Shown: positions 48,506 through 57,690, counted from the stretch's first letter. The stretch: DNA of 64,000 nucleotides from Beijerinckiaceae bacterium (GCA_027532775.1 JAPZTO010000008.1:62001-126000), one strand, 5' to 3'. A program made the numbers and translations. Notes: generated by a model from the sequence alone, not told the origin.

Positions 48506-48740
48506 CGATGATCTCCTCAGGGATTTGATCACAGTGCGGCCTAATTCGTTAATGGAAACATAATCCTGAGGATCGGCCGGCCAGAAAATTTCGCAGTTTC
48601 AGGAATTTGGGAAATCCGGATGATTCTCCGGATCGTATGTTTGCCCCCGGCCCGGGATGTGGCGATTGCCACAGACACGGGCTCCGCTCCGGCCCACGCT
48701 GCGCCCCGCGCGGATGCAGCAACGATGGACGGGGTGCAGC

Positions 48741-49565
48741 ATGAAGGCGGGTTGGACAAGGCAACTGGGAGCCGCAGGCCTGATCACACTGGCCTGCCTC
48801 GGCACCGCCCTCGCGCAGAACCCGGCACCGGACCCGGCGGGCCTGCCCAAGGTCCTGACAGACAAGCTCCTGCCGGAACTGGCCGGGTTGCTGGCCGTGG
48901 CGACGGTGATGGAAACCGCGTTGACGACCCTGTTCAACTGGCGGCTCTACCGGGAGTTCTTCAACGGGCGCGCGGTGAAGACCGTCGTCATGGTTCTGTT
49001 CGGCGGGATCATCGTCTCGGTTTTCAGCTATGATGTCATGGCCCGGATCATCGTCTTCGCCGGGGGCAAGGAAACGGTGACGCCGGTTTCCGGCATTCTC
49101 TCGGCGCTGGTCCTCGCCGGCGGAAGTGCCGCCGTGTTCGAGCTTTTCACCCGGCTGGGCCTGCGCTCGCCCGTCAAGCCGGAGGCGGAGCGGCCGCTGC
49201 CGCCGCAGGATCGCGCCTGGGTTTCCGTCCGGATCGAGCCGATCAGCCTTGTCGGGCCGGCCGAGATCTTCATCGAGAAAATCGCCAGCCCGTCGGAAGA
49301 GGAGAAGGCCATGGCGCCCCTGTCCGGCGTTCTCGGCGAGAAGGGCATCGGGGAACGCATTCGGGCTGTCTTCATGACCGATCCGCTGCGCTTTCCCCCT
49401 TCCGGCGGCTATTCCGTCGAAGCCGGCCCGGTCTACCGGATCACGGCCCGCGCGGCCCGGATGGTCCAGCGCGACCAGACCCGCGAAAAGGCCGTGCAGA
49501 CGGAGACGATCTTTGTCGGGCGTTTCGCGGGGCGGGCGATCATCGATCTCGTCCACCGCATCTAG
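48741..49565 (+). CDS. Exported/integral membrane protein of unknown function, first gene of the patatin-S8-MBL island
   Basis: ATG 48741 (GGGG upstream) gives 274 aa: a signal peptide (MKAGWTRQLGAAGLITLACLGTALAQ) and three hydrophobic helices (ELAGLLAVATVMETALTTLF, VVMVLFGGIIVSVFSYDVMA, ILSALVLAGGSAAVFELFTRLGL). A soluble beta-rich C-terminal domain of about 130 residues follows (VSVRIEPISLVGPAEIFIEKI ... GYSVEAGPVYRITARAARM). No known family is recognised. The gene is 26 bp from the patatin gene on the same strand. A role as membrane anchor or pore for the island's enzymes is a guess. Confidence 0.72.
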   Translation: MKAGWTRQLGAAGLITLACLGTALAQNPAPDPAGLPKVLTDKLLPELAGLLAVATVMETALTTLFNWRLYREFFNGRAVKTVVMVLFGGIIVSVFSYDVMARIIVFAGGKETVTPVSGILSALVLAGGSAAVFELFTRLGLRSPVKPEAERPLPPQDRAWVSVRIEPISLVGPAEIFIEKIASPSEEEKAMAPLSGVLGEKGIGERIRAVFMTDPLRFPPSGGYSVEAGPVYRITARAARMVQRDQTREKAVQTETIFVGRFAGRAIIDLVHRI

Positions 49566-49591
49566 GGTTCGAACCATAGGGGAGGGTGGCC

Positions 49592-50713
49592 ATGCCGGAC
49601 CATGATGTCCAACACAGTGCCGACAGGACCAAACCCGCCCTCGCGCTTTCAGGCGGCGGCTTCCGGGCAACCCTGTTCCATTGCGGCGCGTTGATCCGGT
49701 TGAACGAACTCGGCCTGCTGACCCGGTTCGAACGGATCTCCTCCGTTTCCGGAGGGTCGATCGCGGCCGGCATGCTGGCTGCCACCTGGAAGCGCCTCGT
49801 CATCAAGGATGGCGTGATCACCAATCTCGGCGCCGCGGTGATCGATCCGCTGCGCGTCTTCTGCACGCGGTCGCTCGATACCTCCGCCGTCGGATGGGGC
49901 GCGCTGCTGCCGGGCGTCAGTGTCGGCGACATGCTGGCCGACGCCTATGACGATCTCTTCGGCGGCATCACCCTGCAGGACCTGCCCGATTCACCGCAAT
50001 TCGTGTTCAACGCCACCAACCTGCAGACAGGGCGCCTTGTCCGGCTGCAGAAGCGGCGGCTGGCGGATTACACGATCGGGGAAATTCAGAACCCGAAAGT
50101 CCGGCTGGCTGTGGCGGTGGCGGCGTCCAGTGCCTTCCCGCCCGTCCTCTCCCCGGTCGAGATTGTGACGGATCCCGGTTCGTGGCGGAAGCTCAAAGGG
50201 GCGATCCACCATGGCGATCCGGCCTATACGGGCAAGCTGTCGCTGACCGATGGCGGCGCCTATGACAATCTCGGGCTCGAGACGGTCGATGATTTCCGGA
50301 CGATCGTGGTCAGCGATGCCGGGGCGCCGTTCGGCACCGAGGAAGAGGCCAGCGGCTTCTGGCCGAAACAGGCGATGCGCGCGCTCGACATCGCGACAGA
50401 TCAGGCGCGCGGCCTGCGCAAGCGGCTGCTTTTCGCCGAATGCGCTGCCAGCGGCCGGCAGCCTGTCTATGCCGGGATCGATGGCGATCCGGCCGCCTAT
50501 CCGGCGCCGCAGGGGCTCAAGGCCGGTCCTGCCCGCCGCCGCGCGCTGGCCCGAATGAGGACGCGGCTGAACCCGTTCTCGGAAGCCGAGCAGGGGCAGT
50601 TGATCAACTGGGGCTGGCTCGCGATGGATGTGGCTGCGCGGTCGTTCCTCGTTCCAGGGGCTGCGCCACCGACCGAGTTCCCCGTGCCGGCCTTCCCGCT
50701 GGATGACCGGTGA
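49592..50713 (+). CDS. Patatin-like phospholipase
   Basis: ATG 49592 (GGGGAGGG upstream) gives 373 aa. The oxyanion loop is ALALSGGGFRATLFHCGALIRLNELGLL (residues 17-44). The nucleophile elbow is ISSVSGGSIAAG, with Ser53 where the first Gly of GxSxG is Ser, and the dyad Asp220 is in LSLTDGGAYDNLGLE. The Ser-Asp dyad is intact, so acyl-hydrolase activity on membrane lipids is expected. No signal peptide is present, so it would act from the cytosolic face. Patatins are recurrent effectors in bacterial conflict systems. Here it is grouped with a protease and an MBL hydrolase. Confidence 0.9.
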   Translation: MPDHDVQHSADRTKPALALSGGGFRATLFHCGALIRLNELGLLTRFERISSVSGGSIAAGMLAATWKRLVIKDGVITNLGAAVIDPLRVFCTRSLDTSAVGWGALLPGVSVGDMLADAYDDLFGGITLQDLPDSPQFVFNATNLQTGRLVRLQKRRLADYTIGEIQNPKVRLAVAVAASSAFPPVLSPVEIVTDPGSWRKLKGAIHHGDPAYTGKLSLTDGGAYDNLGLETVDDFRTIVVSDAGAPFGTEEEASGFWPKQAMRALDIATDQARGLRKRLLFAECAASGRQPVYAGIDGDPAAYPAPQGLKAGPARRRALARMRTRLNPFSEAEQGQLINWGWLAMDVAARSFLVPGAAPPTEFPVPAFPLDDR

Positions 50714-50720
50714 GGGCGCC

Positions 50721-51350
50721 ATGCTGGAGACCCTGCAGAAGCTGGCCGATATCGCACAGAAAGGTGTCGTCGCCATCGCGCTGGCCTTCGGGGGGTATCT
50801 GCTTTCGCGCGAGCAGGCCAATGTGACGATTGGCAAGTCCTGCGACGAGATGTTCTCGAAGATCCTCGATTTCGTCAGTGCCAACAACCTGACCGACCGC
50901 ACCAACAACCTCGCCGATTACCGGCTTGAAACCTATGGCAAGGCCTGCGGTGCGCTGAGCGAGGACCGGCTTCGCTACATCAAGAGTTCGTGGAAGCCTT
51001 CGCAGGGCCCGGCCCTCTCGATGGTCGTCGATGCGATGGAGACGAACGAGCCGCCCGCCTCCAAGCTGGGCTGGGTCGCGACCGGGCGGATTCCGCCGCA
51101 ACGCTACAGCGACACCAATTTCGACAGGCTCGACAAGCCGCAGGCCAGTGCAGACGAGGTCGGCGCGATCATCGAGCCGCGCTGGCAGGTGAATGTCCGC
51201 AAGAGCAACACCCCTGTCGCCACCACCAACAACCCGGTGGTCGGACAGGTGGCGCCGGGGGAATGCCTGAAGGTCATCACCGCCGTGAAGGGCCAGCTCA
51301 ACAGCTGGGCGGAGGTGGCATCGGTCACCTGCCCCGTCAACCGGCGCTGA
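50721..51350 (+). CDS. Membrane-anchored protein with C-terminal SH3-like domain
   Basis: ATG 50721, 7 bp after the patatin stop, gives 209 aa. A single hydrophobic helix lies near the N-terminus (GVVAIALAFGGYLLSREQ). The last 60 residues look like a bacterial SH3 domain: WQVNVRKSNTPVATTNNPVVGQVAPGECLKVITAVKGQLNSWAEVASVTCP. Such domains bind cell-wall peptides or proteins. The middle region is not recognised. It lies between the patatin and the S8 protease with very short gaps. Confidence 0.68.
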   Translation: MLETLQKLADIAQKGVVAIALAFGGYLLSREQANVTIGKSCDEMFSKILDFVSANNLTDRTNNLADYRLETYGKACGALSEDRLRYIKSSWKPSQGPALSMVVDAMETNEPPASKLGWVATGRIPPQRYSDTNFDRLDKPQASADEVGAIIEPRWQVNVRKSNTPVATTNNPVVGQVAPGECLKVITAVKGQLNSWAEVASVTCPVNRR

Positions 51351-51360
51351 GGAGGGGAGC

Positions 51361-53592
51361 ATGGAGACAGGCCGCAATGCTGCCCCCCTTGCCCGCGAGG
51401 AACGCGCCGTCCTGACCGATCTCGTGCACCGGACCTTCGGGCACAGCCGCTTCACGCAGGACAGCCCGGTGAGGCCCGATGTCTGGCTGATGCTCTGGGA
51501 GGACCTTGCGCAGGGCCTTGCCGATCCGCGTCCGGACCTGATGATCCAGCCGCGCGACGGTGTTCCGGCGGGCAGCGTGGCCGTGGCGATGGAACTCAAC
51601 CTCGTCGAGGATCCCGACAATCCGGCCCTCAAGCTTTCCATGCGGCGGCGGACGCAGCTCGCCTATTCCCGCTCGACCGTGCATGCGCATCTGACGGTCA
51701 CCGAACTTCTCCGGGCCGTCGTGCCGATGACCGATTGGTGGCACCGCCTTGCGGAGACCGGCACGACCTCGCTTCCGATGGAGGAAGTCGTGCCCGTCGG
51801 CACGCTGGGCCGCGAGTTGCTCCAGTCCGTGAACGAGTTCGCTGCTTCCCTGCGGGACCGGGGCAGCCGCTACACGGTCGATGACGCGATCAAGGAAAGG
51901 CGGACCTCGTTCCAGCTCTACCGGTTCGTCGCCCTGGCCAGCTTCACCGTGCTCTGGCAGCGGCGGCTTGGGCTGGATGCGGCCGGTGCGAGCCTGACAG
52001 CGGTGCTCGAAACCCGGCAGGTCATGCTGGGGGTTGCGCGGTCGCTCACCAACCCGGATGTCGCGCTGCCCGGCCTGCTCGCAGTGCTGAACGAGGCCAT
52101 GAGCCTCGTTCTCCGGACGATCGACGAGGGTTGCGTCCGGCTGCAGGGCGGCAGCCAGCGCTCAGGCGCGGACCGGCTCGTCCAGCAGCAGGACAATCTG
52201 GCCCGGCTCCGCATCCACAGCATCGCCCTCAACCGCCGGGCCGAACATGCGGCCACGCGCTCGCGCCGGACCGTGAAGGCCGATGCTACCCATCGCCTGT
52301 TCCAGACCGACACGACCGGGATCCGGTGGGCGGTGGTCGATAGCGGCATCGATGCGCGGCACGCCGCTTTCGGCGGCAGGGAGGGGGATCATCCCGGTGA
52401 TCAGGCGATCGACAGCAGCCGGATCGTCAGGAGTTATGATTTCACCTATGCCCGGGAACTGCTCGCCACGGCCCGGCTGCCGGTGATCGCGCCCGACCTG
52501 CCGGCGATGAACCGCAGGGCGCTCGACGCTATCCTGCAGGGCGAGGACCATTCCGATCTGCCTCCGCCGCGGCGTCTGGCCTTCGATATCGAGATTGCCG
52601 GCTGGAACGGCGAGTTGCAGACCATCCAGAAAAGATGGGCCGAGTTCCTCGCCTTCGTCACGGCCAGACATTCCGTGGCGCTTGAACGGGTGGCGATCCG
52701 CCGCGAGAGCGGCGCGCCGGTGGATTGGTCGCTGATCGAGCCACTGCTCGAGATTCCCCATGCCGCGCCGCATTACAGGCCGCCGCTGAACGAGCATGGC
52801 ACCCATGTGGCCGGCATTCTCGCCGGGGACTGGCCAGAGGCCAGCCGGACCGCGCAGGGCGCGGAATGCGGGCCGGAAGGGTTCCAGGGCGTGTGCCCGC
52901 GCCTTGCCCTCTACGATATCCGCGCCTTCGATTCCGACGGGCGCGGCCGCGAGGATACGCTGATCTACGCGTTGCAATTCATCGAGCATCTCAACCGTTC
53001 CAGCACCCAGCCGGTGGTCCATGGCGTCAATCTCTCGCTGGCGGTGGGCCATGATGTGCAGGCCTATGCCTGCGGCCAGACGCTTGTCTGCCAGGCCAGC
53101 AACCAGCTGGTGCGCTCGGGCGTGGTTGTCGTCGCGGCGGCCGGCAATATGGGCTTCGAGGGCGATCCCGGCCTCCTCTCGACCGGACAGAATGCGCGCG
53201 ACATCAGCATCACCGATCCCGGCAATGCCGATCTCGTCATCACGGTCGGCGCGACCCACCGGGACAAGCCGCATACCTATGGGGTGAGCTATTTTTCCTC
53301 GCGCGGTCCGACAGCGGATGGCCGGATGAAGCCGGATCTCGTCGCGCCGGGCGAAAAGATCCTCGGTCCGGTGCCGGGGAATGACGCGCTGAAACTGCTC
53401 GACGGCACCAGCATGGCCGCGCCGCATGTCAGCGCGGTTGCTGCGATGCTGATGGCGCGGAACCGCGAGCTGATCGGCCAGCCGCTGCGGATCAAGACGA
53501 TCCTGATGGATTCCGCGATGGATCTCGGCCGGTTGCCGGCCTTTCAGGGCGCGGGGCTGCTCGATGCCCTCAGGGCGCTCCAATCGGTCTGA
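51361..53592 (+). CDS. S8 (subtilisin-like) serine protease, cytoplasmic, with large insert
   Basis: This is 743 aa. About 300 N-terminal residues are mostly helical and unrecognised, with no signal peptide. The S8 triad is complete: Asp327 in WAVVDSGIDARH, His479 in LNEHGTHVAGILAG and Ser684 in LLDGTSMAAPHVSAVAAML; the oxyanion Asn is in VVVAAAGNMGFEG. The Asp-to-His spacing is 152 residues instead of about 32 in subtilisin, owing to an insert (DFTYARELLATARLPVIAP ... GNGELQ-like helical stretch). The absence of export or inhibitor-propeptide features suggests an intracellular, regulated protease, perhaps activating or cleaving an island partner. It is 24 bp from the MBL gene. Confidence 0.9.
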   Translation: METGRNAAPLAREERAVLTDLVHRTFGHSRFTQDSPVRPDVWLMLWEDLAQGLADPRPDLMIQPRDGVPAGSVAVAMELNLVEDPDNPALKLSMRRRTQLAYSRSTVHAHLTVTELLRAVVPMTDWWHRLAETGTTSLPMEEVVPVGTLGRELLQSVNEFAASLRDRGSRYTVDDAIKERRTSFQLYRFVALASFTVLWQRRLGLDAAGASLTAVLETRQVMLGVARSLTNPDVALPGLLAVLNEAMSLVLRTIDEGCVRLQGGSQRSGADRLVQQQDNLARLRIHSIALNRRAEHAATRSRRTVKADATHRLFQTDTTGIRWAVVDSGIDARHAAFGGREGDHPGDQAIDSSRIVRSYDFTYARELLATARLPVIAPDLPAMNRRALDAILQGEDHSDLPPPRRLAFDIEIAGWNGELQTIQKRWAEFLAFVTARHSVALERVAIRRESGAPVDWSLIEPLLEIPHAAPHYRPPLNEHGTHVAGILAGDWPEASRTAQGAECGPEGFQGVCPRLALYDIRAFDSDGRGREDTLIYALQFIEHLNRSSTQPVVHGVNLSLAVGHDVQAYACGQTLVCQASNQLVRSGVVVVAAAGNMGFEGDPGLLSTGQNARDISITDPGNADLVITVGATHRDKPHTYGVSYFSSRGPTADGRMKPDLVAPGEKILGPVPGNDALKLLDGTSMAAPHVSAVAAMLMARNRELIGQPLRIKTILMDSAMDLGRLPAFQGAGLLDALRALQSV

Positions 53593-53616
53593 GGCTTGTG
53601 AAGGAAGGAGGGGCCG

Positions 53617-54774
53617 ATGGTCACGTTCGAGGCGCTGGATGCCGCCTATGGCGATTGCCTGATGGTGCATTATTCCCAGAATGACGAAGCAGGCCAGCCG
53701 CAACGGCAGCTCTGGCTGATCGATGGCGGGCCGACCGAGACCTATCCGAGGGCGCTCGCGCCCCGACTGCGCGAGCTTCAGGCCCAGCAGGGCGGGAATG
53801 GCCCGCTGCGGATCCGGCTGGGCGTCGTCACCCATATCGACGATGACCATATCGATGGCATGGGCAAGCTGATCGGCGCCATGGCCGAGAACCCGCCACC
53901 GGCCGGGACGCCGGATCTGCGGTTCCAGGAATTCTGGTTCAACGGTTTCCAGGCGACTTTCGGCACGACGGCACAGGCCGGGGGTTCGGTGGCTTCGCTG
54001 GCCAGCAATGATGTGTTCATGGCCAGTGCCCCCGGGCCGGAGACGGCGATGTTCATCCAGGGCGTTCGCGACGGCGAGACGCTGCTGCGGAATCTCGGCG
54101 CCCTGAAGCCCGGCGGACGTGTGCCGCAAACACTCAACCAGAGTTTCGGGAGCGAGGCGCACCAGAAGGCGCTGGCCCCCCGCGTGATCCGGTTCGGCAC
54201 CAACGGGCCGAAACTGGAGATCCTGACGCCGACCCAGCCGAGGCTCGACGCGCTGAAGACCAAATGGGCGGAAGCGACAGGATCGGACGCGGCGCTGCAG
54301 GCCTTCGTCCGCGGCAAGATCGATACCTCCGTCGCCAATCTCTCCTCGATCGTGTTTCTCGCAACAATTGATCGGAAGACCCTGCTCCTCACCGGAGATG
54401 GCCTTGCCGAGCACATCATCGAGGGCTGGAAGGACCGGGCGGGCAACACCGATCCGTTCCCGATCGACCTGATGAAGGTTCCGCATCACGGCTCTTCGGC
54501 CAACAATTCCGAGGCGCTCTTCCGGCTGTTCCCGGCCCGGCATTACGTGTTCTGCGCCAATGGCAAGCATGACAACCCGGACATGTTCACGCTGCAGGCG
54601 CTCAAGAACGCATGCGGCCAGAACCGGTTCACCGTGCATCTGACCTATGAGGAGGCCCATCCGGCAACCGCAGCCCAGACCGCCTTCCTCAAGGCCATGG
54701 CCGCAGCCTCGAATGGCCGGATCGATCTGAATTTCCGCAAGCCCAACGCACTCTCGGTGCCGGTCGCGCTCTGA
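53617..54774 (+). CDS. Metallo-beta-lactamase-fold hydrolase, ComEC/Rec2-like
   Basis: This is 385 aa. The first motif reads GVVTHIDDDHIDGMG (His73-x-Asp75-x-Asp77-His78), that is HxDxDH in place of the canonical HxHxDH. SSIVFLATIDRKTLLLTGDGLAEHI and MKVPHHGSSANNSEALFRLF follow as in the ComEC C-terminal nuclease-like domain. No membrane helix or signal peptide is present. Phosphodiesterase or nuclease activity is possible. Stand-alone MBL proteins with an adjacent protease occur in AVAST type 1 defence loci, but the NTPase of those loci is absent here. Confidence 0.86.
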   Translation: MVTFEALDAAYGDCLMVHYSQNDEAGQPQRQLWLIDGGPTETYPRALAPRLRELQAQQGGNGPLRIRLGVVTHIDDDHIDGMGKLIGAMAENPPPAGTPDLRFQEFWFNGFQATFGTTAQAGGSVASLASNDVFMASAPGPETAMFIQGVRDGETLLRNLGALKPGGRVPQTLNQSFGSEAHQKALAPRVIRFGTNGPKLEILTPTQPRLDALKTKWAEATGSDAALQAFVRGKIDTSVANLSSIVFLATIDRKTLLLTGDGLAEHIIEGWKDRAGNTDPFPIDLMKVPHHGSSANNSEALFRLFPARHYVFCANGKHDNPDMFTLQALKNACGQNRFTVHLTYEEAHPATAAQTAFLKAMAAASNGRIDLNFRKPNALSVPVAL

Positions 54775-54884
54775 ATCTTAACGCCCTGTTCATCTTTGTG
54801 GGAATCCCCACCGACAGAGGAGGGCGCGCGCCTAGGCTGGGACACCCGGAAATCCGGCGAGACCTTCGGCAGGGGGGAGCGAGC

Positions 54885-55937
54885 ATGAGGGCAGGGCATT
54901 CCGGCATTCCGGCGCCGATCCATGCACGGGCCTTGCCCCGGTTCTGGCTGGTTCTTCTACCGCTTCTGTTCCTTTCTGCCTGCATGGGCGATGTGAAGCT
55001 GATGCGCGAGGGTGCCGGCACGACTTTGGCCTGGGAAGGCCAGTCCGATGCCTTGGCGGCGCAGGACCAGTATCTTGGCCAACTCTGCGTCCAGGCCGGG
55101 TTTCCCGGCCCGGCCGAGACCTGCCGGCCGACGCGCCCCTCTGACTGGAAGCTGATCGTCCAGGCCGGCCTCAATGACATCGATGCGCGCTGCGATGCCT
55201 ATCTCGCCTGGCTCGACGACAAGCGGCGCTCGGCCCGGCCCATCCAGCAGCAGCTGGCCGATGCCCGGACGGCCACGACCGCCATTCTGGCTGCGACCGG
55301 GGTCGGTGTCGATCCGATCGCCATTGTCAGCGCGGCTTTCGGTTTTGCGACCAGCAGCTTCACGAATTTCCAGTCCCGCCTTGTGCTGGAGGTCAACCAT
55401 TCCACCGTCCAGTCCATCGTGCTGGGCGCGCAAAGGCGGCTTCGCGAGGAGATCCGGCCGCTCCTCATCACGAACCGGCCCGATGCGGTGCATGCGATGC
55501 GGCAATATCTCCGCCTGTGCATGCCTTTCACCATCGAGACCGAGATCAACACCACGCTCACGACGCTCGAGCGGAGCGGCATGGTCCGCTCGCCGCTGAT
55601 CGATGGCTCGACCATCGAGGCGACCATTATCGGCTCGGCGGGGGACCCTGTCGGCCCGTTCCAACGTCCTAAACCGCCGCCGCTCAAGGGCGAGCCGCTG
55701 GGGGCCTACGAGACCGGCCTCCGCGACCCGCTGATCCGGCAATTCGAGACGATCGCCTGCCTGAAACCTTCCGGGGTGCTGACAAAGGCGGTGCGCGAAG
55801 GCCTGCTCGCCTTCCTCAACGGGAACAACTCGAAGGGAGAGGTCTTCAAGGATCCGAGCGAGAAGGACCGGCTGACGCCGCTCGATGGCGCCATGTTCCG
55901 GCAGATGAAGAGCGACGGCATCACCTGCAAGCGCTGA
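54885..55937 (+). CDS. Lipoprotein of unknown function
   Basis: ATG 54885 (GGGGGGAGC upstream) gives 350 aa with a type II signal peptide: FWLVLLPLLFLSACMGD, lipobox LSAC, Cys33. The mature part is helical with QQLADARTATTAILAATGVGVDPIAIVSAAFGFATSSFTNFQSRLVLEV and several Cys. No family is recognised. A 110-bp gap with a weak hairpin (GTGGG-AATC-CCCAC) separates it from the MBL gene, so it may start a second transcript. The next gene, a cell-wall hydrolase, follows after 10 bp. Confidence 0.78.
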   Translation: MRAGHSGIPAPIHARALPRFWLVLLPLLFLSACMGDVKLMREGAGTTLAWEGQSDALAAQDQYLGQLCVQAGFPGPAETCRPTRPSDWKLIVQAGLNDIDARCDAYLAWLDDKRRSARPIQQQLADARTATTAILAATGVGVDPIAIVSAAFGFATSSFTNFQSRLVLEVNHSTVQSIVLGAQRRLREEIRPLLITNRPDAVHAMRQYLRLCMPFTIETEINTTLTTLERSGMVRSPLIDGSTIEATIIGSAGDPVGPFQRPKPPPLKGEPLGAYETGLRDPLIRQFETIACLKPSGVLTKAVREGLLAFLNGNNSKGEVFKDPSEKDRLTPLDGAMFRQMKSDGITCKR

Positions 55938-55947
55938 GGAGGCATCC

Positions 55948-57663
55948 ATGGCCATCAACCGCGAAGACTTTGCCCAGCAATGCGTCGAGAGCGGGGTGTG
56001 GGTGGGTGTCCAGCCCCATTTCCTGATGGCGCTCGCCCAGCTCCGCAGCGGCATCGTCAACACGACGACCGGCGAGGCGATCGGCCCCTACCGCGTGACC
56101 GAGGCCGAATGGAATGCCGATGGATCGCATCAGGAGTTGCAGATCCATCTCGGTGCCGACCGGCGGAGGTTCCCCTTCGTTCAGGTGCTGCATGCCGCGA
56201 TCCGGACCTTGCGGGTCAGCCAGGCCTTCTCGCTCGAACAGGGCCGGCACCCGACGAGTGTCGAACTCTACAAGGCGGGATGGCCGGATGATCCGGATAT
56301 CGCCGTCGCGGGGTTCGAATCCCGCCTGCAGGCCGCGCTCGACGCCACACGGGCGGAGATCGTCGATGCGTTTGCCGTGCTCTACCCTGCCACGATTTCC
56401 GACGATGCGGCGCTTGGCGGTGCGGATCCGAATATCCCGCCCCGGACCGGCGATGGCGCCGGCCCCGGCATCCAGCCATCGGAGAAACTGTTCGCCGAGA
56501 AGTGCCTCTGGATCATGGTCCGGCTGGTCGATGCCTTCGACCTGACCGGTTTCCAGGTAGCAGGGATCCTCGGCAATCTCGGGCATGAATGCGCCGGCTT
56601 CCGCGACATGCACCAGAAGGGCGTGAGCATAGCCACGGGCGGGCTCGGCTGGGCGCAATGGTCCGGCTCGCGGCGGAATACCTTCGAGGCTTTCGCCGCG
56701 GAAAAGGGCCTGACGGTCTATTCGGACGAGGCCAATTTCGGCTTCCTGATGCATGAGTTGCGGACGACGCATGCCGTCGCGATCACCGAATTGCGCAAGA
56801 CCACCACCCTGTCCGAGGCGGTGAAGAGTTTCGAAGCCACCTACGAGAAGGCCGGGGTGAAGAACTTCCCCAGCCGGGAACGATGGGCGACCCTCGCGCT
56901 CGATCTCTACCGGGCCGGCGGCCAGCCCGGCGCCGCCATCAGCCCGTTGCCGGCACGGGCGACCGACCTGTTGCAGGCCGCCGTGCCTTTCCGTGTGCTT
57001 GCCAGCGCCAAAGCCGGAAAGCGGCAGTTCTGGCTCGTGGGCGAGGGCGGCGAGGTGCCCGGGCAGGTCCTGATCGAGCAGCGCTCGGACGGGGAAGTGC
57101 GGGTCCTCAAACGCGATACGCTCGTCGTGCCGCTGAAAGGACTGGGCCTGCCCTCCGAGGTCGTGGCGGATCTCGAAAGCGATATCGAGAGCCCCGATCC
57201 TGTCGGGAAAACACCCGGCATCACAGTTCCCGCCAGCGATCGCGCCGGCCGGCTTTTTGCCGCCGCCGTCGCTGCAGTGAACACGCTGGTCTCCCGCCAT
57301 GTCAAAGGCACCAGCAACGGCCAGCTGGCCTGTGCCTGGGCGGTCAACACGCTGGCCAGCCAGGCGCTGGGCAAGCCGATCGGCGGCAATCTCGCGACGG
57401 CTGCCATGGCCAAGGTGCTGGTGGCGAACCATCAGGAACTGGCGGAAAACGCGCTGGTTGCCGGGGCGATTGTCATTTCTCCCACAGCCGGGGGTGTGAC
57501 GGGCCATGTCGGCATTGCCGGGGAGCCGGCAGTGCCGGTCGGCAAGACGAAGATCTATTCGAACAGTTCCTCGCGCGGAGTGTTCCTGCAGAACTACACG
57601 GTGGAGAGCTGGCATGCGCGGTTCGACAAGCGCGGCCTCGATATCCGCTATTTCCTGCCCTGA
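55948..57663 (+). CDS. Phage-tail-lysozyme domain plus papain-like C-terminal domain protein
   Basis: This is 571 aa with no signal peptide. Residues about 185-330 match the phage tail lysozyme fold: DLTGFQVAGILGNLGHECAGFRDMHQ (candidate Glu214) and GLGWAQWSGSRRNTFEAFAAEKG. Residues about 440-571 look like a papain/CHAP-type peptidase: GQLACAWAVNTLASQALGKPIGGN (Cys462) and GVTGHVGIAGEPAVPVG (His520). The N-terminal 150 residues are not recognised. The protein should cut peptidoglycan glycan and peptide bonds. Lack of its own export signal means delivery by another route or release on lysis. It is last in the island. Confidence 0.85.
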   Translation: MAINREDFAQQCVESGVWVGVQPHFLMALAQLRSGIVNTTTGEAIGPYRVTEAEWNADGSHQELQIHLGADRRRFPFVQVLHAAIRTLRVSQAFSLEQGRHPTSVELYKAGWPDDPDIAVAGFESRLQAALDATRAEIVDAFAVLYPATISDDAALGGADPNIPPRTGDGAGPGIQPSEKLFAEKCLWIMVRLVDAFDLTGFQVAGILGNLGHECAGFRDMHQKGVSIATGGLGWAQWSGSRRNTFEAFAAEKGLTVYSDEANFGFLMHELRTTHAVAITELRKTTTLSEAVKSFEATYEKAGVKNFPSRERWATLALDLYRAGGQPGAAISPLPARATDLLQAAVPFRVLASAKAGKRQFWLVGEGGEVPGQVLIEQRSDGEVRVLKRDTLVVPLKGLGLPSEVVADLESDIESPDPVGKTPGITVPASDRAGRLFAAAVAAVNTLVSRHVKGTSNGQLACAWAVNTLASQALGKPIGGNLATAAMAKVLVANHQELAENALVAGAIVISPTAGGVTGHVGIAGEPAVPVGKTKIYSNSSSRGVFLQNYTVESWHARFDKRGLDIRYFLP

Positions 57664-57690
57664 CATCGCGGCCCTGGATCTGCCGGAGCG

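What the first reader, a model, noticed from the sequence alone, without database searches (positions are those of the whole stretch)
48741..57663. Seven-gene island joining patatin, S8 protease, MBL hydrolase and a cell-wall hydrolase: candidate undescribed system
All seven genes point the same way, with gaps of 7-26 bp inside the first five and 10 bp inside the last two. Recognisable members each attack a different cell polymer: lipid (patatin), protein (S8), probably phosphodiester (MBL) and peptidoglycan (lysozyme plus papain-like). The others are envelope-located: an exported three-helix protein, a membrane-anchored SH3-like protein and a lipoprotein. No metabolic pathway joins these. Patatins, S8 or trypsin-like proteases and MBL proteins are known effectors of bacterial conflict systems (AVAST type 1 pairs MBL and protease with a STAND NTPase). 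Here no NTPase sensor is present, so this would be a different design: possibly an abortive-lysis or envelope-attack module in which the cytosolic protease is the switch.
Basis: partly seen in the sequence, partly recalled or inferred. Interest (0 to 1): 0.85.

Follow-up and report, generated by a model that had tools for sequence, protein, structure and literature searches.

The report
Protease-triggered DNA-cutter and lipase island
A seven-gene block in an alphaproteobacterium is built around a subtilisin-type protease next to a DNA-cutting enzyme that looks locked until it is cut, plus a lipid-cutting enzyme and a membrane protein, and most likely kills or arrests the cell when a virus attacks; the same parts recur together in distant bacteria.

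Summary
In detail: seven intact, co-directional genes sit in a block about 9.0 kb long that is missing cleanly from a close relative. The reading as one seven-part system is only partly right. The conserved core is an S8 protease (g4) directly upstream of a ComEC-like metallo-beta-lactamase nuclease (g5). This pair recurs in at least 14 unrelated loci, including Actinomycetota. Its catalytic residues are intact, the two genes co-evolve (r=0.83), and the modelled nuclease has two disordered insertions. That matches the 'gated pro-nuclease plus activating protease' pairs shown experimentally for AVAST, Hachiman and Canu (Science 2025, PMC12799240), but with a subtilisin-type protease. The patatin (g2) and the three-helix membrane protein (g1) are recurrent partners. 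Independent searches with g1 or g2 alone repeatedly land beside an MBL nuclease and a protease (S8, caspase, or a zinc protease with no family model). g3 is an orphan. g6-g7 (lipoprotein plus cell-wall hydrolase) is a separable unit that co-occurs only sometimes. Most likely function: abortive-infection defence in which the protease releases a DNase and, by inference, works with a phospholipase. Not tested in a cell. New variant of a known kind.

The parts
48692..57688 (.). whole accessory block, present or absent as a unit
   Evidence: empty site in G002: flanks align to 48588 (plus a patch 48655-48691) and from 57689; LysR and MCP adjacent
48741..49565 (+). g1: exported or membrane protein, three hydrophobic helices plus C-terminal domain; recurrent partner of protease-MBL pairs
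49586..50713 (+). g2: patatin-like phospholipase, recurrent partner of protease-MBL pairs
   Evidence: Pfam E 4e-20; neighbourhoods
50721..51350 (+). g3: small protein with N-terminal hydrophobic stretch and weak SH3-like C-terminus; orphan outside the genus
   Evidence: SH3_3 E 0.06; no relative on plasmids
51361..53592 (+). g4: S8 (subtilisin-like) protease, triad D327/H479/S684 plus N596 intact
51361..52290 (+). g4 N-terminal region (residues 1-310), found only in S8 proteases paired with this MBL; candidate regulatory or sensing part
53617..54774 (+). g5: ComEC-like MBL, predicted gated pro-nuclease
53944..54177 (+). g5 predicted gate 1 (residues 110-187, pLDDT below 50)
   Evidence: length varies 25-67 aa between fixed anchors N109 and G153 in relatives
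54268..54327 (+). g5 predicted gate 2 (residues 218-237, pLDDT below 50)
54885..55937 (+). g6: lipoprotein (lipobox LSAC); first gene of a separable two-gene unit
55948..57663 (+). g7: lysozyme-like plus papain-like (CHAP-type) cell-wall hydrolase
   Evidence: Phage_lysozyme2 E 3e-22; relatives beside g6 homologs

Best explanation
The block is a mobile or accessory bacterial immunity (abortive-infection) island. Its core, g4-g5, is an S8-protease version of the gated pro-nuclease/protease pairs known from AVAST type 1, Hachiman, Lamassu, DRT and Canu. Proposed working: the MBL DNase is made inactive because two disordered insertions cover its active site. On an infection cue, probably read by the S8 N-terminal region and/or by g1 at the membrane, the S8 protease cuts these insertions, and the freed nuclease degrades DNA and stops the cell. 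The patatin is a second, membrane-directed killing arm. It may be released by the same protease; g1 is its membrane partner or the sensor. g6-g7 is an add-on that opens the cell wall. Shown: gene content, recurrence, co-evolution, intact active sites, modelled insertions. Inferred: cleavage, DNase activity, trigger, phage defence, and the roles of g1, g2, g3, g6 and g7.
For: S8 directly upstream of MBL on the same strand in the window, L013-L016, L018, L019, L037-L045. MBL best solved-structure match is the ComEC nuclease domain, E 1e-9. The two stretches with pLDDT below 50 are 110-187 and 218-237. S8 and MBL distance matrices correlate, r=0.825 over 13 loci, 0 of 20,000 permutations. MBLs group by partner protease: S8, caspase, zinc protease. 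The S8 N-terminal region occurs only in MBL-paired proteases; 0 of 80 viral S8 loci carry this MBL. Patatin searched alone: MBL nearby in 9 of 13 loci, with S8, caspase or zinc protease. g1 searched alone: protease plus MBL nearby in 8 of 10 plasmid loci and 4 of 8 chromosomal loci. Published biochemistry of the MBL-protease mechanism: PMC12799240. Defence neighbours: TIR/E2/cyclase (L015), SIR2 (L018), McrBC (L011), CBASS (L202), restriction/NACHT (L051).
Against: No experiment. Gate sequences are not conserved across S8-linked MBLs, so no shared cut site (the conserved Ile or Gly of the known pairs) is visible. Low confidence in the gates may partly reflect a shallow 10-sequence alignment. 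The window block itself sits among metabolic genes, not in a defence island. No sensor is identified; the S8 structure model failed. The MBL profile was built from S8-linked MBLs, which biases recovery of such pairs.
Confidence: 0.68

Rival explanations
1. Interbacterial antagonism or plasmid-competition cargo: lipase, peptidoglycan hydrolase, nuclease and protease are weapons delivered to or released on neighbours, with g6 or g1 as immunity or release proteins.
For: g6-g7 and g1 relatives sit in conjugative-plasmid cargo regions next to LysR and tra genes, with amidases and GH25; g7 and a lipase resemble secreted effectors.
Against: S8, MBL and patatin have no hydrophobic signal-like stretch and no recognised delivery domain; the MBL is of the ComEC/Avs1a/LmuA defence kind; S8-MBL occurs without any wall hydrolase in most loci.
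Confidence: 0.15
2. Anti-plasmid or anti-conjugation system rather than anti-phage: same protease-nuclease core, but triggered by incoming plasmids.
For: Many relatives are on large rhizobial plasmids.
Against: Mechanistically compatible with the main reading; the closest characterised pairs stop phages (PMC12799240).
Confidence: 0.1
3. Envelope maintenance or stress operon with a housekeeping role (lipid, protein and wall turnover).
For: g1, g6 and g7 look like envelope proteins; genes are under purifying selection.
Against: Patchy: g6 in 3 of 17 genomes of the genus, and the block is cleanly absent in a close relative; MBL profile found in 11 of 398 genomes of the order.
Confidence: 0.07

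Closest known systems
Gated MBL pro-nuclease / protease pairs of AVAST type 1, Hachiman, Lamassu and DRT (Tuck et al. 2025, PMC12799240)
   Same: Same MBL kind with ComEC-like fold, two predicted disordered insertions, co-evolving adjacent protease
   Different: Protease is S8 (subtilisin-like) and standalone, not trypsin-like fused to a sensor/effector core; protease is upstream of the MBL; no STAND, helicase, SMC or RT; patatin and g1 are partners
Canu (caspase-nuclease) systems
   Same: Standalone protease gene upstream of the MBL nuclease; variable extra genes; DUF2235 or patatin neighbours in related caspase-MBL loci L020, L054
   Different: Subtilase instead of caspase; MBL falls in a separate clade; in the caspase-linked MBLs compared, gate 1 is short and gate 2 long, the reverse of S8-linked MBLs
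Lamassu LmuA
   Same: Best PADLOC match of g5 (E 2e-46)
   Different: No LmuB SMC partner in the island
CBASS with patatin effector (CapV-type)
   Same: Patatin-like phospholipase as membrane-directed killer
   Different: No cyclase in the island; g2 homologs lie with MBL and protease instead (L202 has both nearby)
IetAS
   Same: S8 protease in defence (weak match E 2e-10)
   Different: No IetA ATPase; score far below the IetS cut-off

Membership tests
Gated MBL nuclease-protease pair | MBL of the ComEC-like nuclease fold with intact metal ligands | tested here: met
   Foldseek best hit 9ic4 ComEC, E 1.2e-9; D36, H73, D75, D77, H78, D261, H290 and H291 invariant in 14 loci
Gated MBL nuclease-protease pair | two disordered insertions at the active site | tested here: met
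   the two low-confidence stretches are 110-187 and 218-237; caveat: shallow alignment, and closeness to the active site was not measured
Gated MBL nuclease-protease pair | adjacent, catalytically intact protease that co-evolves with the nuclease | tested here: met
   triad intact in 13 of 14 (Asp unaligned in divergent L042), Mantel r=0.825
Gated MBL nuclease-protease pair | conserved cleavage residue in each insertion | tested here: inconclusive
   insertions vary in length and sequence; no shared residue seen
Gated MBL nuclease-protease pair | protease cuts the MBL and switches on DNase | not testable with these tools
   needs biochemistry
AVAST type 1 | Avs1a MBL above the curated cut-off | tested here: not met
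   126.8 bits against a cut-off of 420
AVAST type 1 | trypsin-like protease with STAND NTPase | tested here: not met
   S8 instead; no NTPase family and no convincing P-loop in the seven proteins
Canu | caspase-family protease upstream of the MBL | tested here: not met
   protease is Peptidase_S8; MBL outside the caspase-linked clade
Lamassu | LmuB SMC-like partner | tested here: not met
   no SMC in the block
CBASS | CD-NTase cyclase gene | tested here: not met
   none in the block
IetAS | IetS above NCBIfam cut-off with IetA ATPase | tested here: not met
   25 bits against a cut-off of 900; no ATPase in the block

The most novel reading that the evidence does not exclude
A sensor-NTPase-free, caspase-like proteolytic cascade in which one subtilisin-type protease, controlled by its own N-terminal region and a three-helix membrane protein, activates two executioners at once, a DNase and a phospholipase, with lipase, protease class and wall-hydrolase modules swapped freely between lineages.
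Probability: 0.3. Interest if true: 0.85.

Novelty: new variant of a known kind. Interest (0 to 1): 0.68.

Why it matters
Proteolytic activation of killer enzymes is central to animal immunity and was only recently shown for MBL nucleases in bacteria. This finding adds a third protease class (subtilases), and points to a fourth (zinc proteases), that appears to have been coupled to the same nuclease kind. It also shows that patatin and a membrane protein g1 recur as partners whatever the protease class. That makes a testable prediction: the protease, nuclease and lipase form one modular death cascade.

Tried and rejected
Seven genes as one indivisible system: rejected, since g6-g7 and S8-MBL occur separately. 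NTPase sensor: no P-loop in the block except a non-convincing ANVTIGKS in g3. Single-sequence search of 337 genomes with g5 found only the window; a profile was needed. Structure of g4 failed (mean pLDDT 30.5), so nothing is concluded about its N-terminal region. Pfam on the S8 alignment gave only Peptidase_S8 in more than one member. Viral-contig scans with MBL alignments gave distant MBLs used only to deepen the alignment. Two further viral-contig scans, with another MBL and with g1, found nothing. Literature searches found no S8-MBL system; supplementary files of PMC12799240, which may list S8 partners, could not be read.

Full report
WHAT IS THERE. The dS values are close to those of the flanking chemotaxis gene, so the block is old in this lineage. 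In another close relative, G002, the flanking LysR and MCP genes are neighbours with about 165 bp between them instead of the block of about 9.0 kb. Because G002 resembles the window at the flanks more than G015 does (LysR 99% against 95%), loss as one block in G002 is the simpler reading. The g6 gene is present in 3 of 17 genomes of the genus.

WHAT THE PROTEINS ARE. g2 is a patatin, g4 an S8 protease and g7 a Phage_lysozyme2 protein with a weak CHAP-like C-terminus. g5 is an MBL protein whose best defence-library matches are LmuA (E 2e-46) and Avs1a (E 7e-28), far below the NCBI equivalog cut-off for Avs1a (126.8 against 420 bits). g1, g3 and g6 match no family above cut-off. g1 has three hydrophobic helices after a signal-like start and g6 has a lipobox.

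THE CORE PAIR. tblastn on plasmids and profile searches of genomes found relatives of g5. In the window set, L013-L016, L018, L019, L037-L041, L044 and L045 an S8 protease of the g4 type lies immediately upstream on the same strand; L042 and L043 have divergent S8 proteases in the same place. All eight genome hits of the MBL profile with E at or below 1e-60, apart from the window's own, have an S8 directly upstream; one more at 7e-50 does too. The profile was made from S8-linked MBLs, so this count is biased towards such pairs. The hosts include several families of the order Hyphomicrobiales, Rhodobacterales (L019) and an actinobacterium (L014). The pair is rare: the MBL profile hit 11 of 398 genomes in the order sample and 4 of 349 in the phylum sample, the window's own included. 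Catalytic residues of the MBL are invariant in 14 loci; the S8 triad is intact in 13, with the Asp unaligned in L042. S8 and MBL distances correlate with r=0.825 over 13 loci (0 of 20,000 permutations as high). Shared species history could add to this, but the loci come from many genera and plasmids. The S8 N-terminal region (residues 1-310) is found only in these MBL-paired proteases, and none of 80 S8 loci from viral contigs carries this MBL, g1 or the patatin (viral S8s are an imperfect control).

THE MECHANISM. Tuck et al. (PMC12799240) showed that MBL nucleases of AVAST type 1 and Hachiman are pro-enzymes whose active site is blocked by two disordered insertions, that a partner trypsin-like protease cuts these and unleashes a DNase, and that caspases do the same in Canu. 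[quoted passage not shown] In our model of g5 the only two segments with pLDDT below 50 are 110-187 and 218-237, and the best solved-structure match is the ComEC nuclease domain, the kind of enzyme those authors compared with. The stretch between the fixed residues N109 and G153 varies from 25 to 67 residues across S8-linked MBLs. No shared cut site is visible, so that feature is undecided. Closeness of the insertions to the active site was not measured on the model. The tree of MBLs separates S8-linked (support 94/96), caspase-linked (97/93, with one MBL of unknown partner) and zinc-protease-linked (100/100) groups.

THE PARTNERS. Searching plasmids with the patatin alone and reading 13 neighbourhoods, 9 contain an MBL of these families within the fetched 5-7 kb or so: with S8 (L016, L019), caspase (L054), zinc protease (L049, L050, L202, L203), or a partner not identified (L055, L205, where the MBL match is weak). 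The two other patatins of the same genome have none of these neighbours (L047, L048). Searching with g1 alone, 8 of 10 plasmid loci and 4 of 8 chromosomal loci with usable flanks have a protease plus MBL nearby. The zinc protease (HExTH...HEAFAD) has no Pfam, PADLOC or NCBIfam model and is sometimes fused behind another S8 domain. In other S8-MBL loci the patatin is replaced or joined by a DUF2235/Tle1-like lipase (L014, L039), a DUF900 hydrolase (L045), an FRG protein (L013, L018) or a cyclase-E2-TIR set (L015). The Paroceanicella locus (patatin-g1-S8-MBL) is nearly g1-g2-g4-g5 in another order of bacteria; the S. meliloti locus (patatin-S8-MBL) is the smallest set.

g6-g7 AND g3. g6-g7 relatives form a two-gene unit on Rhizobium plasmids with no protease-MBL pair within the fetched stretch in L009 and L012. 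In R. etli (L011) the pair stands next to S8/zinc protease-MBL-g1, and in Rhizobium 32-5/1 the two modules are about 13 kb apart. g6-g7 is therefore an add-on. g3 has no relative on plasmids.

VERDICT. The best explanation is an S8-type gated-nuclease/protease immunity module with a patatin and a membrane partner, plus an attached wall-hydrolase unit. It works like the published pairs but is not a member of AVAST, Lamassu, Canu, CBASS or IetAS, since defining features of each were tested and not met. Function in phage defence, cleavage, DNase activity and the roles of g1-g3, g6 and g7 are inferred.

Noticed in passing
L050:2129-4087, L018:1808-3550, L051:9825-11702, L202, L203; fused to S8 in L011:13524-17234, L056, L192, L194, L197: Zinc metalloprotease family (HExTH...HEAFAD) with no model in Pfam, PADLOC or NCBIfam, paired with a second MBL family, patatin and g1: probably a fourth protease class in nuclease-protease pairs.
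   Followed up: partly
L015:4564-11239: Methylorubrum pCMU01: adenylate/guanylate cyclase, E2-domain protein and TIR protein directly upstream of S8-MBL, suggesting a nucleotide-signal version.
   Followed up: no
L052:2266-4581: Trypsin-like domain fused to a DNA/RNA non-specific endonuclease, in the same plasmid region as a g1 homolog: another protease plus nuclease design.
   Followed up: no
L202:706-10177: Patatin-zinc protease-MBL beside a CBASS cyclase and SAVED protein on a Rhizobium rhizogenes plasmid.
   Followed up: no
L009, L013, L052, L056: Rhizobial plasmids share HTH and LysR genes beside changing conflict-gene cargo; in L009 and L056 an ArdC-like or zincin-like gene, WGR and the conjugation genes follow.
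   Followed up: partly
L020:2241-10779: Bradyrhizobium plasmid with DUF2235-caspase-unknown-MBL facing a separate S8 protease plus AAA ATPase pair (IetAS-like composition).
   Followed up: no
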